The position numbers and the translations under genes were made by a program. The notes under the pieces are model-generated. The model made no database searches, was not told the DNA's origin, and saw only the letters and a program-made list of their open reading frames with translations. DNA of 7,039 nucleotides from Acinetobacter sp. UBA6641. GTDB lineage: Bacteria; Pseudomonadota; Gammaproteobacteria; Pseudomonadales; Moraxellaceae. The stretch spans positions 47,300-54,338 of the forward strand of contig DKLL01000163.1 of assembly GCA_002455755.1 (NCBI GenBank), in the 5' to 3' direction. This document shows, in pieces, positions 1-7,039 of this stretch (position 1 is the first letter of the stretch; each line of letters starts with the position of its first letter).

Positions 1-1057
<1,057 letters not shown>

Positions 1058-1156
1058 GGTCACTCCTTTTTGGAATCATAATCATTCCTTTTAGATTTCA
1101 AATAGATAGGTCCACCGCATCCAATCTGGTTATAAGTCAAATGCGGCTTCTAACTG

Positions 1157-1188: not shown

Positions 1189-2595
<1,407 letters not shown>

Positions 2596-2626: not shown

Positions 2627-3457
2627 TCATTCCTTAGTGGCAAGAAAATCATTGACCAAGCGGATAAAACTCTTGTTTTGCTCGATCTGCACCCAATGAC
2701 CACATTTACCAAAAACGTGTAATTGTGAGGTTTCGATCAACTGATTCAGCCGCAATGATGTTTCAAGAGGAATCACATGATCATCGCGACCGTGTAAGAT
2801 TAGTGTTTCATGCTGGATGGCCTGAATGTCCTGATCGGAACTTGCCAGCGCATCTACCCAACGCTGCCGCGGGGCAGGGAACATGGAGGAAAAAGCCTCC
2901 TGAAAGCCAGGTCTGATGCTTGCCTTGTAGCGCAACTCCGCCAGCTCATCAGAAATGAGACTTCGGTCGTAGGCGAAGTAGTCCATGACTTTGCGCATAT
3001 TCGGCACGGATGGCTCATAACCCCAGACTGCATCAAGTCCATCCGTAAGCTCGAATCTCACACCAACGGATCCCATCAGCACCAGCCGACGGACCCGATG
3101 TGGAAATCTGATAGCAAAGGCCAATGACAAGGCACCACCGAATGAATTCCCTACAAGATCGACACGGTCGAGTTCCAGTGCATCAAGGATTCCAATCAAA
3201 TGAGCAACCCAAGAGTCGATTCCGTAGTGAATTCCTTGCGGTCGCTGCGTGAAGCCGAAACCCACCATGTCCGGTGCAATGACGCGGCGGTGCTTGGACA
3301 ACTCGGGCATGACCGTCCTCCAGTTCGCCCAAGCGGTCACACCCGGGCCTGAACCATGAACGAGTACGACAGGCTCACCAGTACCAACATCATGGAGATT
3401 GGTTTCAATTCCACCAGCCAAGACCATGCGGCCAAGCTCTTCGTTTACATTCATCAT
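2627..3457 (-). CDS. todF: 2-hydroxy-6-oxo-2,4-heptadienoate hydrolase (meta-cleavage product hydrolase)
   Basis: This 276-residue alpha/beta-hydrolase belongs to the family that splits the C-C bond of the ring-cleavage product of 3-methylcatechol, giving 2-hydroxypenta-2,4-dienoate and acetate. The oxyanion-hole motif HGSGPG is at 34-39. The nucleophile elbow GNSFGG carries S105, the acid is D226 in GRDDHVIP, and the histidine is H254 in GKCGHWVQ, so the triad is complete. The lid region is about 135-200. It is very similar to TodF, with CumD/IpbD as close relatives. The ATG at 3457 was chosen because an AAGGAG site (3466-3471) lies 8 nt upstream; the frame also offers a TTG at 3460 and an ATG at 3454. 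In classic tod operons todX comes first; here todF is the first intact gene behind the TodT-type operator, with only a todX relic in front. Confidence 0.95.
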   Translation of the reverse strand: MMNVNEELGRMVLAGGIETNLHDVGTGEPVVLVHGSGPGVTAWANWRTVMPELSKHRRVIAPDMVGFGFTQRPQGIHYGIDSWVAHLIGILDALELDRVDLVGNSFGGALSLAFAIRFPHRVRRLVLMGSVGVRFELTDGLDAVWGYEPSVPNMRKVMDYFAYDRSLISDELAELRYKASIRPGFQEAFSSMFPAPRQRWVDALASSDQDIQAIQHETLILHGRDDHVIPLETSLRLNQLIETSQLHVFGKCGHWVQIEQNKSFIRLVNDFLATKE

Positions 3458-3482
3458 CAATTACGCTCCTTGTCCTTGGAGT

Positions 3483-3640
3483 TTAAAAATTTTAGTTCTA
3501 CGAAATACTGTATTTATTTAACTGTGGCTTTGCCGTAACATCTCTGTGCCAGCCAAGTACGATGGCGTCTGCACGCACTCTCACAGGTCAAAAGAAATCG
3601 CTAAATTGATCCTAGAGTCCTTAGTCATACTCACCACTGA
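3483..3640 (-). pseudogene. todX: Decayed 3' remnant of todX (outer-membrane toluene channel, FadL/OmpP1 family)
   Basis: Conceptual read-through gives KDSRINLAISFDL, a TGA stop (3583-3581), then VQTPSYLAGTEMLRQSHS and a TAA stop (3520-3518). This matches the C-terminal end of TodX as I remember it from P. putida F1 (roughly the last 50 residues). GGTGAGTATGAC at 3635-3624 encodes the preceding GEYD, but the next bases are about 5 short, shifting the frame. Near the end a single-base loss and further stops disrupt the final beta-strand, whose S..NF and TAA stop (3485-3483) can still be traced. TodX normally lets toluene cross the outer membrane. No start codon or N-terminal part is present upstream, so this is non-functional. 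It occupies the position expected of todX, directly before todF. The TodX match rests on memory and needs an alignment. Confidence 0.82.
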
Positions 3641-3673
3641 AAAGTAAACAACCACTACCTTTCTGCATGTACG

Positions 3674-3679
3674 ATATTA
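3674..3679 (-). promoter_or_regulatory. Possible -10 element upstream of todF
   Basis: TAATAT reads on the minus strand about 60 bp downstream of the tod box. There is no matching -35 hexamer, which is usual for an activator-dependent promoter. The distance from the tod box is shorter than in the published todX promoter, where the box is centred about 105 bp upstream of the transcription start; that spacing would put the start near 3645. The native core promoter may lie there or may have been changed by the todX deletion. Confidence 0.25.
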
Positions 3680-3718
3680 CAATCACGACCTAGCGGAATA
3701 TTGTTTTTTGGCTTATAG

Positions 3719-3733
3719 GTTTATAAAGTTATC
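3719..3733 (-). promoter_or_regulatory. Secondary TodT-like half-sites
   Basis: On the minus strand, GATAAC and ATAAAC occur in tandem, separated by 3 nt, about 25 bp downstream (centre to centre) of the palindromic tod box. ATAAAC is exactly one half of that box. Published work on the todX promoter describes additional imperfect TodT sites downstream of the main box, so these are plausible equivalents. The exact footprint cannot be read from sequence alone. Confidence 0.5.
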
Positions 3734-3742
3734 GCAGCTTTT

Positions 3743-3758
3743 ATAAACGATGGTTTAT
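3743..3758 (-). promoter_or_regulatory. tod box: binding site for the response regulator TodT
   Basis: The minus strand reads ATAAACCATCGTTTAT, a palindrome of ATAAAC and GTTTAT around 4 nt. As I recall it, this equals the tod box upstream of todX in P. putida F1, where the TodS/TodT two-component system activates the operon in response to toluene. Its orientation and place upstream of the todF-led operon agree with that role. todS and todT are not in this window. Confidence 0.85.
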
Positions 3759-3908
3759 AAATCTCCTGATGAATATGCACCTTGGCCTAAACACTTTGAT
3801 ATTTTCGAACAGACTGGCCGGAAAGGGGATGTCAAGGAAACATACAAATCAGATAGATGGTCTACGCTGGAATACGAAATTCCCGTAACCACTGTCAAAG
3901 CTTTTTGA
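3750..3908 (+). CDS. Small open reading frame of unknown function, doubtful
   Basis: This is the only short open frame of note on the plus strand beside the operator: ATG to TGA, 52 residues. It begins MVYKSPDEYAPWPKHF and continues with EQTGRKGD and DRWSTLEYEIP, a mixed, charged, protein-like composition without signal peptide or membrane segment. I do not recognise a family. Arguments against it are that its ATG lies inside the tod box, no Shine-Dalgarno sequence precedes it, and the opposite strand is also open across the same bases. It could be a chance frame, or a relic of a gene that once lay divergent to the operon. Confidence 0.2.
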   Translation: MVYKSPDEYAPWPKHFDIFEQTGRKGDVKETYKSDRWSTLEYEIPVTTVKAF

Positions 3909-4536
3909 AAATCAAGAATTAAATGCGAATTGACTAAACCAGGTAATTTATTATTGTTTTGCAATATTATTGTACATACCAAGGGCTAGATAGCTTTGGT
4001 TATCAAGCTTATTTGAATAAATGTTATAAATACAATGGTCACCCCCATCCAATCTGGCATAGGTATCTACACAATTTCCGAGCTTTTCATTAAATTGAAG
4101 AGCAAGCACTTCAATTTATCATCTCTAGTCTGAATAAACGTCTTATCAAATACTATAACAACCGTCTCACGCTCAAGATAAATCCTCTTGCTTCACTTAC
4201 TCCTGCTATCAAAGACCTGACTTCTATCTAAAAATCGGGTTTCACAACTACACAGACAGTTTGGCGATTCCGAAATAATGACTAAATCTTTTCTAAGTCT
4301 ATTAAAAAATTGATTGAACATCTCACATATGAACAGATCACTGCATCACTAACATGTGCAGCAAATACAGCATTCTGAAGATGAGTATAAGCAGAAAAAA
4401 ACCGTTTATTTCTTACCCATCTTTCAGGCAGGCAACAGAAGAGGTACGTTAGAAAGAGCACATACCCTATTTGTAGGACTTTCGACTTTACTGAATACCC
4501 TTCAACTGCTCTCAAAATATTCAATAAATGAACTGA
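3759..4536. other. AT-rich stretch without a convincing gene
   Basis: About 780 bp between the tod box and the pyruvate carboxylase terminator are clearly richer in A and T than either flanking operon. Frames on both strands are short, lack ribosome-binding sites and resemble no family I know. No tRNA, terminal inverted repeats of an insertion sequence, or CRISPR-like repeat was seen. A frame at about 4094-4228 (plus) reads LNKRLIKYYNNRL followed by SLTPAIKDL, vaguely like the C-terminal end of a DDE transposase, but too weak to call. The stretch most likely holds decayed sequence at the junction between the acquired operon and the host chromosome. Confidence 0.5.
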
Positions 4537-4570
4537 AAGCCAATTAATTCAATTATGAATTAATTGGCTT
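4537..4570 (-). terminator. Hairpin terminator downstream of pyruvate carboxylase
   Basis: A perfect 15-bp stem (AAGCCAATTAATTCA paired with its complement) closes a 4-nt loop. It lies 61 bp beyond the pyruvate carboxylase stop. On the minus strand the stem ends in GGCTT followed by TCAGTTCATTT, a weak T-rich tail, so termination is likely but not textbook. The other strand is followed by AAACAG, giving no T-run in that direction. Confidence 0.65.
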
Positions 4571-4631: not shown

Positions 4632-7039
4632 CTATTGAACGAGTAAAACCAAATCCATATTTCGAACCGGTTTACCTGGACTCATCAGAATGTCTTGAAT
4701 CACGCAATCCTTATCAGCCTTGATTGCGAGTTCCATTTTCATAGCCTCAATGGTAAATAGAGTGTCACCTTTCAGAATCGTTTGTCCCGGCTTCACTGCA
4801 ATCGTACTGATTATTCCTGGCATGGATGTACCTACATGACTTGGGTTCATTGGATCTGCTTTTGGATGAGTCGTAGCTTCTTTCTGGCTCGCCTGTTCAA
4901 TCTGAAGTAAGCGTAGTTGTCCATTCAGCTCAACAAATAGATCAATTACCCCGTCTTTGGCTTCTGCACGTCCCAACAACTTAATTTCCAGAGTTTTGCC
5001 ACGTTCAAGCTCAACCTCAACAGGGCTGTTTTCTTTTAATCCATAAAAAAATGCTGAGGATGGAATGCTCGACACCTTGCCATATCGCAATTTGTGCTGC
5101 ATAAAGTCAGTAAAGACTTTCGGATACATCAGATAAGATGCCAGTTCCTGCTCAGTGATCGCTTGATCAAAGATATTCTCCAGCATTGCCTTTTCACCAT
5201 TCAAGTCCACAGCTGGCAGAATGGCTCCAGGTCGATCACTTAATGGGGCGGCACCTTTTAACACCTTGTGCTGTAATTCTTTTGGGAAACCATGCTCTGG
5301 GGTACCCAATTCACCTTTAAACAGCGAAACTACCGATTCAGGGAAATCAATCTCAAGCTTTGGATTATGTATATCTTCTGGTGTGAGCTGATTGGACACC
5401 ATATATAGGGCCATATCCCCTACCACTTTGGAGGTCGGTGTGACTTTAACAATGTCACCAAACAGTAAGTTGACTTGTGCATAGGCATCCGAGACTTCAG
5501 ACCAGCGTTCTTCAAGGCCCAGTGAGCGTGCCTGTTCACGCAGGTTGGTATATTGCCCACCTGGCATTTCGTGATGATAAACATCGGCAGTACCAGCATG
5601 CATATCTGCTTCAAATGGCGCATAGATATGACGTACACCTTCCCAATAAGTGGAAAGTTGTTGTAGATTAGCTTGATTGAGACCTGTGTCTCGATCACTA
5701 TTTTGCAATGCTGCGACCACAGAGCCCATGCTTGGCTGTGAAGTGAGACCGCTCATGGCGTCCATGGCGGTATCTACAGCATCTACACCAGCATCAATCG
5801 CAGATAAAATACTGGCTGCCGCAATACCACTGGTGTCATGGGTATGGAAGTGTATCGGCAATCCAGTTTCTTCTTTCAGCACCTTGATCAACTCTCGTGC
5901 TGCAGCTGGTTTGCATATGCCAGCCATGTCTTTGATGGCAAGGATGTTAGCCCCTGCCTTTTGCAGTTGCTTGGCCATATCCACATAGTAGTTGAGATTA
6001 TAGCGGCGGTTGTTGTCAAAGATATCGCTGGTATAACAGATCGCTGTTTCACACAGCATGCCTGATTCTCTTACTGCATCAATGGCAACTCGCATATTGT
6101 CAACTGCATTGAGCGAGTCAAATACACGGAACAAGTCAATACCGCTTTGTGCTGCCTGGGCAATAAAGTGACGAACCACATTGTCCGGATAGTTGGTATA
6201 GCCCACGGCATTGGATGAGCGAAGTAGCATTTGAAATAAAATGTTCGGTACCGATTCACGCAGTTTGGCCAAACGCTCCCATGGGTCTTCTTTTAAAAAG
6301 CGCATGGAGACATCGAAGGTTGCACCACCCCAGCATTCCAGTGAGAACAGTTCACTGGCCATACGGGCATAGTATGGTGCGATCTCCAACATATCTGCGC
6401 TACGCATACGCGTTGCAAATAAGGACTGGTGAGCATCACGCATGGTGGTATCCGTAATCAATACACGCTTTTGATCCAGCATCCATTGAGAGAAGCCGTC
6501 TGCCCCTAGTAATTTGAATTGGTCTCGGGTTCCTGTCGGAATAGATTGGTTCAGGTCAAATGCAGGTCGCTGTGCAACAGCTGGAGCTGTCTCTGGAAGT
6601 AAACGTCCTTTGATTTCAGGCTGTCCATTAACGGTAATATCTCCAAGAAATTCCAGTAATTTGGTGGCACGGTCCTGTTTTGGTTTAAGGTTAAATAATT
6701 CAGGGGTACGATCAATAAATCGGGTAGTACATGTTCCTTGCGTAAATAAAGGATGTGTCACCACATTTTCTAAAAATGCCAAATTGTTAGAAACACCACG
6801 GATACGAAATTCCTGTAATGCTCGTAGCATGCGGGCATTAGCTACATCACTGCTGGCACCACGAACCGTGACTTTGGCCAGTAAGGAGTCGTAATAGGGG
6901 GTAATCACTGCACCGGTATAGGCAGTCCCGCTGTCTACCCGCACTCCAAAACCGGTCGCGCTACGAAATGCAGTCAAGCGTCCATAGTCGGGCATAAAAT
7001 CCTTTTTAGGGTCTTCGGTGGTTAGTCGGCATTGTAGTG
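4632..7039 (-). CDS. pyc: Pyruvate carboxylase, C-terminal about 800 residues (5' end beyond window)
   Basis: This biotin enzyme carboxylates pyruvate to oxaloacetate, refilling the TCA cycle. The frame stays open to the right edge: before the internal ATG at 6995 it reads LQCRLTTEDPKKDF, which runs into PDYGRLTAF as in the biotin carboxylase C-terminal domain, so 6995 is not the start. Numbering from that methionine, the biotin carboxylase tail spans about 1-100. The carboxyltransferase domain spans about 175-450, with metal ligands D182 (DTTMRDAHQ), H384 and H386 (HFHTHDTSG) and the lysine K355 (AIKDMAG) that is carbamylated in this family. The conserved pyruvate carboxylase domain follows, and the biotinyl domain ends the protein with K753 in EAMKM. 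All three activities on one chain indicate single-polypeptide pyruvate carboxylase (about 1150 residues) rather than an oxaloacetate decarboxylase alpha subunit. The stop is TAG. It appears to be a host gene unrelated to the tod operon. Confidence 0.94.
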   Translation of the reverse strand, partial: LQCRLTTEDPKKDFMPDYGRLTAFRSATGFGVRVDSGTAYTGAVITPYYDSLLAKVTVRGASSDVANARMLRALQEFRIRGVSNNLAFLENVVTHPLFTQGTCTTRFIDRTPELFNLKPKQDRATKLLEFLGDITVNGQPEIKGRLLPETAPAVAQRPAFDLNQSIPTGTRDQFKLLGADGFSQWMLDQKRVLITDTTMRDAHQSLFATRMRSADMLEIAPYYARMASELFSLECWGGATFDVSMRFLKEDPWERLAKLRESVPNILFQMLLRSSNAVGYTNYPDNVVRHFIAQAAQSGIDLFRVFDSLNAVDNMRVAIDAVRESGMLCETAICYTSDIFDNNRRYNLNYYVDMAKQLQKAGANILAIKDMAGICKPAAARELIKVLKEETGLPIHFHTHDTSGIAAASILSAIDAGVDAVDTAMDAMSGLTSQPSMGSVVAALQNSDRDTGLNQANLQQLSTYWEGVRHIYAPFEADMHAGTADVYHHEMPGGQYTNLREQARSLGLEERWSEVSDAYAQVNLLFGDIVKVTPTSKVVGDMALYMVSNQLTPEDIHNPKLEIDFPESVVSLFKGELGTPEHGFPKELQHKVLKGAAPLSDRPGAILPAVDLNGEKAMLENIFDQAITEQELASYLMYPKVFTDFMQHKLRYGKVSSIPSSAFFYGLKENSPVEVELERGKTLEIKLLGRAEAKDGVIDLFVELNGQLRLLQIEQASQKEATTHPKADPMNPSHVGTSMPGIISTIAVKPGQTILKGDTLFTIEAMKMELAIKADKDCVIQDILMSPGKPVRNMDLVLLVQ

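What the first reader, a model, noticed from the sequence alone, without database searches (positions are those of the whole stretch)
3483..3640. todX survives only as a broken 3' remnant in front of an otherwise intact tod operon
The 5' leader of todF encodes a recognisable TodX C-terminus, but with in-frame stops at 3583-3581 and 3520-3518, a roughly 5-bp loss after GEYD and a 1-bp loss near the end. TodF, C1, C2 and B next door have intact frames and complete active-site motifs. Loss of the hydrocarbon channel while the catalytic genes stay under selection suggests that uptake is unnecessary in this host or is done by another FadL-type protein.
Basis: partly seen in the sequence, partly recalled or inferred. 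Interest (0 to 1): 0.75.

Follow-up and report, generated by a model that had tools for sequence, protein, structure and literature searches.

The report
Deleted toluene-channel gene, kept promoter leader
In a probable Acinetobacter genome the toluene-uptake gene todX has shrunk to a broken scrap of its last 54 of 453 codons in front of intact toluene-breakdown genes, while the stretch just upstream, which likely holds the operon's switch, stays conserved; a related plasmid carries this leader twice, once in front of a different uptake channel that would likely replace TodX.

Summary
todF, C1, C2 and B have open frames. The closest relative found, Acinetobacter haemolyticus w12 plasmid p4 (CP085288), carries the leader twice: before todF, and in shorter form before an intact FadL-family gene that is closer to CymD and TbuX than to TodX. 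All three remnants start near the same TodX residue, so the deletion is probably older than the duplication. Upstream of the remnant lies a 16-base sequence that I recall as the TodT-binding 'tod box' of PtodX. That region (93-95%) and the ribosome-binding stretch (100%) are conserved between window and w12; the todX tail drifts (77%, with gaps). Best reading: an internal deletion removed todX but kept its promoter leader, which likely now drives todF; hydrocarbon entry would fall to another FadL-type channel or to slow passive diffusion. Modest interest: known parts, a new variant of arrangement.

The parts
3485..3641 (-). todX 3' remnant: TodX residues 400-405 (3641-3624) and 408-453 (3622-3485), with in-frame stops at 3583-3581 and 3520-3518 and a 5-base loss between the two pieces
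   Evidence: tblastn with P0121; frameshift-tolerant alignment against 60 shuffles; alignment with the two w12 copies
3743..3758 (-). ATAAACCATCGTTTAT, predicted TodT-binding tod box (identity of the motif recalled, not sourced)
   Evidence: exact match, chance expectation 0.01 for the window with up to 2 mismatches; exact in the w12 todF leader and in no other of 49 loci; one base different in the w12 channel leader
3710..3726 (-). TTATAAACC followed by TATAAGCC: two further half-site-like copies, predicted
   Evidence: TATAAACCTATAAGCC invariant in all three leaders; pattern scan
3664..3824 (-). conserved leader block, predicted promoter and control region kept upstream of the deleted todX body
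   Evidence: segment and sliding identities against w12; no sigma-70-type minus-strand hit is against it
3825..4038 (-). upstream extension of the leader, shared only with the w12 todF copy (88%)
3461..3489 (-). ribosome-binding stretch of todF (AAGGAG at 3471-3466)
   Evidence: 29 of 29 identical to w12
2627..3460 (-). todF, alpha/beta hydrolase, intact frame (likely ATG start at 3457 or 3454)
1189..2541 (-). todC1, dioxygenase large subunit, intact frame
494..1063 (-). todC2, dioxygenase small subunit, intact frame
162..485 (-). todB, Rieske ferredoxin, intact frame
4057..4537 (+). internally deleted insertion-sequence remnant (DDE transposase fragments) that bounds the leader

Best explanation
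An internal deletion likely removed codons 1 to about 399 of todX and left its last 54 codons as a decaying scrap, while the upstream leader, which likely carries the TodT-controlled todX promoter, stayed conserved and would now drive todF and the catalytic genes directly. Shown: the remnant and its breaks, the open catalytic frames, the shared start of the remnant in three leader copies, and the conservation pattern. Inferred: that the leader is PtodX, that it is active, and that the change was one deletion that came before the leader was duplicated. In the related w12 plasmid a second, shorter copy of this leader stands before a CymD/TbuX-type FadL channel, so uptake there would be served by a replacement channel under the same switch; whether the window's host has such a channel is untested.
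For: Only TodX residues 400-453 are found. The window leader and both w12 leaders start the TodX match at or near residue 400 and stay alignable upstream of it, which points to one shared junction. Exact tod-box-like palindrome plus two half-site-like copies upstream. Identity window to w12 todF leader: 95% and 93% over 3824-3690, 86% over 3689-3646, 77% with 10 gap columns over the todX tail, 100% over the ribosome-binding stretch; Fisher p 5e-5 for 3824-3690 against the tail, limits chosen after looking. w12 also encodes a TodS-like kinase (best solved match TodS PAS1, E 1.2e-67) and a receiver-GerE regulator. The w12 channel scores CymD 630, TbuX 509, TodX 336 bits, and CymD and TodX each support toluene growth in P. 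putida F1 (PMC7728783 section 6).
Against: The tod-box letters are recalled; no held paper prints them, and no P. putida DNA for PtodX was available to align. No sigma-70-type promoter is seen on the minus strand of the leader, and the segment just before the remnant is only 66% conserved against the channel-leader copy, so the core promoter may be damaged. The exact box is in one of the two w12 leaders; the other differs by one base. Leader or channel DNA was not found in any of 348 genomes of one family, so the pattern rests on two records.
Confidence: 0.6

Rival explanations
1. Plain loss: todX decayed because passive entry of toluene or benzene suffices for this host, and no replacement channel exists; the conserved leader is just the operon promoter.
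For: A P. putida F1 strain without its three FadL-type channels still grows slowly on toluene vapour (PMC7728783 section 6). The genome behind Acidovorax benzenivorans L001 has a tod-like operon but no PF03349 match. The window shows no channel gene.
Against: The nearest relative keeps a CymD/TbuX-type channel behind a copy of the same leader; relatives of that channel at 87-89% identity exist, one named Acinetobacter sp. ANC 5383.
Confidence: 0.25
2. The upstream block is not PtodX: a recombination or insertion-sequence event joined foreign DNA to the todX tail, and the operon is driven from elsewhere.
For: Insertion-sequence remnants bound the leader in the window, and an IS66-like stretch without annotation lies upstream of it in w12 (my reading); no sigma-70-type promoter on the minus strand; tod box known only by recall.
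Against: Exact 16-base match with chance expectation 0.01; the same block stands before two different genes in w12 and is better conserved than the tail.
Confidence: 0.12
3. Sequencing or assembly error in an intact todX.
For: Single-base slips are a usual form of such error.
Against: An independent record shows the same truncation twice, with different breaks; the absence of about 400 codons is not a base-calling error.
Confidence: 0.02

Closest known systems
tod operon of Pseudomonas putida F1 / DOT-T1E (todXFC1C2BADEGIH with todST; gene order recalled)
   Same: todF-C1-C2-B order; TodX tail in the usual place upstream of todF; 34 of 39 residues identical over the best-kept stretch of the tail
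   Different: todX reduced to its last 54 codons; leader joined to the tail
A. haemolyticus w12 plasmid p4 tod cluster (CP085288)
   Same: leader, remnant and operon; 92% over 4.05 kb
   Different: has a second, shorter leader copy before an intact FadL-type channel; its todC1 frame is broken in the record; a different insertion-sequence stretch lies upstream
CymD (6z34) and TbuX (3bry), FadL-family channels
   Same: closest solved relatives of the w12 channel
   Different: not present in this window
tod-like operons of Pandoraea pnomenusa MCB032, Cupriavidus campinensis MJ1 and Acidovorax benzenivorans (L048, L049, L001)
   Same: todF-C1-C2-B order, about 75-78% DNA identity
   Different: no todX remnant before todF and no exact tod box in the fetched loci; L048 has an intact TodX-family gene further upstream, L049 and L001 show none

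Membership tests
todX (Toluene_X / FadL-family channel gene) | open frame for a full-length 14-strand barrel channel | tested here: not met
   54 of 453 codons, two stops, frame slips
todX (Toluene_X / FadL-family channel gene) | descent from TodX rather than another FadL-family gene | tested here: met
   36 of 46 residues (78%) identical to TodX over 3622-3485
tod operon | todF, C1, C2, B in order with open frames | tested here: met
tod operon | todA, D, E, G, I, H and todST downstream | not testable with these tools
   beyond the window; no genome held; several of them present in w12
PtodX promoter | TodT boxes upstream | tested here: inconclusive
   exact box by recalled motif plus two half-site-like copies; no sourced sequence
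PtodX promoter | toluene-induced transcription through TodST | not tested
   bench experiment needed
CymD/TbuX-type channel (w12 gene, not in the window) | full-length FadL-family protein closer to CymD/TbuX than to TodX | tested here: met
   CymD E 1.6e-188, TbuX 7.8e-152, TodX 2.9e-99; PF03349 154 bits over cut-off 29.7; 40% identity to TodX

The most novel reading that the evidence does not exclude
In Acinetobacter the todX gene was hollowed out into a compact promoter cassette (tod boxes, todX tail, todF ribosome-binding stretch) that was copied and set before a CymD/TbuX-type channel of another lineage, so that one switch runs a swapped-in hydrocarbon gate and the old catabolic operon, in this host as in w12.
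Probability: 0.35. Interest if true: 0.55.

Novelty: new variant of a known kind. Interest (0 to 1): 0.37.

Why it matters
It would show how a catabolic operon changes its outer-membrane gate in a new genus: the channel gene is replaced by a non-orthologous one while the control region is kept and duplicated. It also offers a natural case for asking whether TodX is needed for toluene use, which the paper I read addressed with knockouts (PMC7728783).

Tried and rejected
Own-genome search: no genome is held for the window. Leader DNA in 369 genomes of the class of G001: 5 of 369 with a match, all 23-49 bases, judged chance. Leader-plus-channel DNA of w12 in 348 genomes of the family of G013 (by inference Moraxellaceae, from a FilD hit and the carboxylase matches): 11 of 348 with a match, all 24-53 bases, judged chance. 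Tod box in IMG/VR: 23 contigs hold the 16-mer, not followed, since 16 bases are few for so large a collection; a 22-mer from the leader gave 0. Tod box with up to 2 mismatches in 6 genomes: 1 of 6 with a weak match, not followed. Papers: no held text prints the tod-box letters; the Lau 1997 and Lacal 2006 papers are not held. A search for Acinetobacter, todX and toluene gave 6 papers, seen as a listing only; one for Acinetobacter haemolyticus, tod, benzene and plasmid gave 0; this is no proof that the arrangement is unpublished. Rfam over the window: 0 matches. Leader in the E. coli genomes: no match. The junction DNA between leader and channel in w12 has no other good plasmid match (itself and one 47-base match). 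A leader-peptide role for the remnant was considered and dropped because of its stops and drift.

Full report
What is there. On the minus strand the window reads, in order, the C-terminal part of a pyruvate carboxylase (7037-4632, cut by the window end; profile positions 355-1142 of 1143), an insertion-sequence remnant on the plus strand (4057-4537), a leader (4038-3461), then todF, C1, C2 and B with open frames. Acinetobacter as the host genus is inferred: the nearest tod relative found is an A. haemolyticus plasmid, and the carboxylase stretch matches two A. pittii plasmids at about 78% and up to 83% in a family that I infer to be Moraxellaceae (15 of 348 genomes with a match, 11 of them 970 bases or longer).

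The remnant. Intact TodX (P0121, 453 aa) hits 3622-3485 over residues 408-453 at 78% identity, E 4.8e-15. Six residues at 3641-3624 match 400-405; alone they are chance-level (E 14), but they sit directly before the main hit. The other 27 of 29 hits have E 0.14 or worse and are scattered. A frameshift-tolerant alignment scores 146 against at most 34 in 60 shuffles. Both stops, the 5-base loss and the late single-base slip are as described, with an added base further on. Nothing of codons 1-399 was found.

The relative. The best plasmid match to todF-C1 is A. haemolyticus w12 plasmid p4, 94.5% over the whole query (68 records matched, 3 covered at least 80% of the query in one place). There the leader occurs twice: before todF (L047 13413-14003) and, shorter, before an intact FadL-family gene (leader L047 10581-10958; gene annotated 11007-12500, likely start 11106). 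Both copies hold a todX tail: TodX residues 400-453 in the channel leader, and a match from residue 389 in the todF leader, in which residues 394-398 are gapped and the clear part begins at 400. The simplest order of events is deletion first, duplication second; this is inference. The channel is not TodX: among solved chains CymD scores 630 bits, TbuX 509 and TodX 336, and it is 40% identical to TodX. Relatives at 87-89% identity exist, one named Acinetobacter sp. ANC 5383; their surroundings could not be fetched with the tools at hand.

The leader. On the minus strand, about 100 bases upstream of the remnant, lies ATAAACCATCGTTTAT (3758-3743). From memory this is the tod box bound by TodT at PtodX. 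No held paper prints it, and two papers where I would look are not held. A held paper states that TodT binds three sites of PtodX with different affinity (PMC2442086, passages seen). Besides the palindrome the window has TTATAAACC at 3726-3718 and TATAAGCC at 3717-3710; TATAAACCTATAAGCC is invariant in all three leaders. The exact palindrome is in the w12 todF leader and in no other of the 49 loci held then; the channel leader differs by one base. w12 encodes a 979-residue TodS-like kinase and a receiver-GerE regulator at the end of its cluster.

Conservation. Between the window and the w12 todF leader, 3824-3765 is 95% identical, 3764-3690 93%, 3689-3646 86%, the todX tail 77% with 10 gap columns, and the last 29 bases before todF 100%; the upstream extension 4038-3825 is 88%. 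The first two segments together against the tail give Fisher p 5e-5, with limits chosen after looking. Fourfold sites differ at 24 of 131 (todF), 29 of 72 (C2) and 14 of 45 (B); codon third positions are 73-86% identical over the four genes. So the tail changes like unconstrained DNA between two better-kept stretches: a predicted control region and a ribosome-binding stretch. Against this reading, a sigma-70-type scan finds no minus-strand promoter in the leader, and the segment just before the remnant is only 66% conserved against the channel-leader copy.

Function. In P. putida F1, TodX and CymD each restore growth on toluene vapour to a strain without its three FadL-type channels, the fatty-acid-type channel does not, and the strain without channels still grows slowly (PMC7728783, abstract and sections 4 and 6 read). 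A CymD-type channel is therefore a plausible replacement, and its absence need not be fatal. The genome behind Acidovorax benzenivorans L001 has a tod-like operon but no PF03349 match; of 6 genomes or records searched, 2 had one (w12 plasmid and Pandoraea plasmid), and 2 of the 4 without are actinobacteria. A tod-like operon without such a channel is thus not unique.

Verdict. Observation confirmed. Interpretation partly supported and sharpened: probably a promoter-keeping internal deletion of todX, with channel replacement seen in the anatomy of a relative and untested for this host. The components are known kinds; the arrangement is a new variant.

Noticed in passing
L047 14922-16270 (w12 todC1): The w12 todC1 frame is broken midway in the record and no CDS is annotated there, while the window's todC1 is intact; a pseudogene or a sequencing error.
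   Followed up: partly
window 4057-4537: Internally deleted insertion-sequence remnant related to a DDE_Tnp_1 transposase of Acinetobacter sp. ANC 7924 plasmid pANC7924.1, directly upstream of the leader.
   Followed up: partly
window 4632-7037: Pyruvate carboxylase gene next to the tod operon; related stretches lie on A. pittii plasmids (about 78%) and in genomes of a family inferred to be Moraxellaceae (up to 83%).
   Followed up: partly
L001 (genome G001, Acidovorax benzenivorans): tod-like operon in a genome without any PF03349 (TodX/FadL) match at E 0.001.
   Followed up: partly
L047 10959-11105: Junction DNA between the duplicated leader and the channel start; the annotated GTG start at 11007 is likely too early, since relatives P0002 and P0003 start where 11106 would.
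   Followed up: partly
window 3755-3982: 75-aa minus-strand ORF over the upstream part of the leader, without any Pfam or NCBIfam match; probably not a gene.
   Followed up: no
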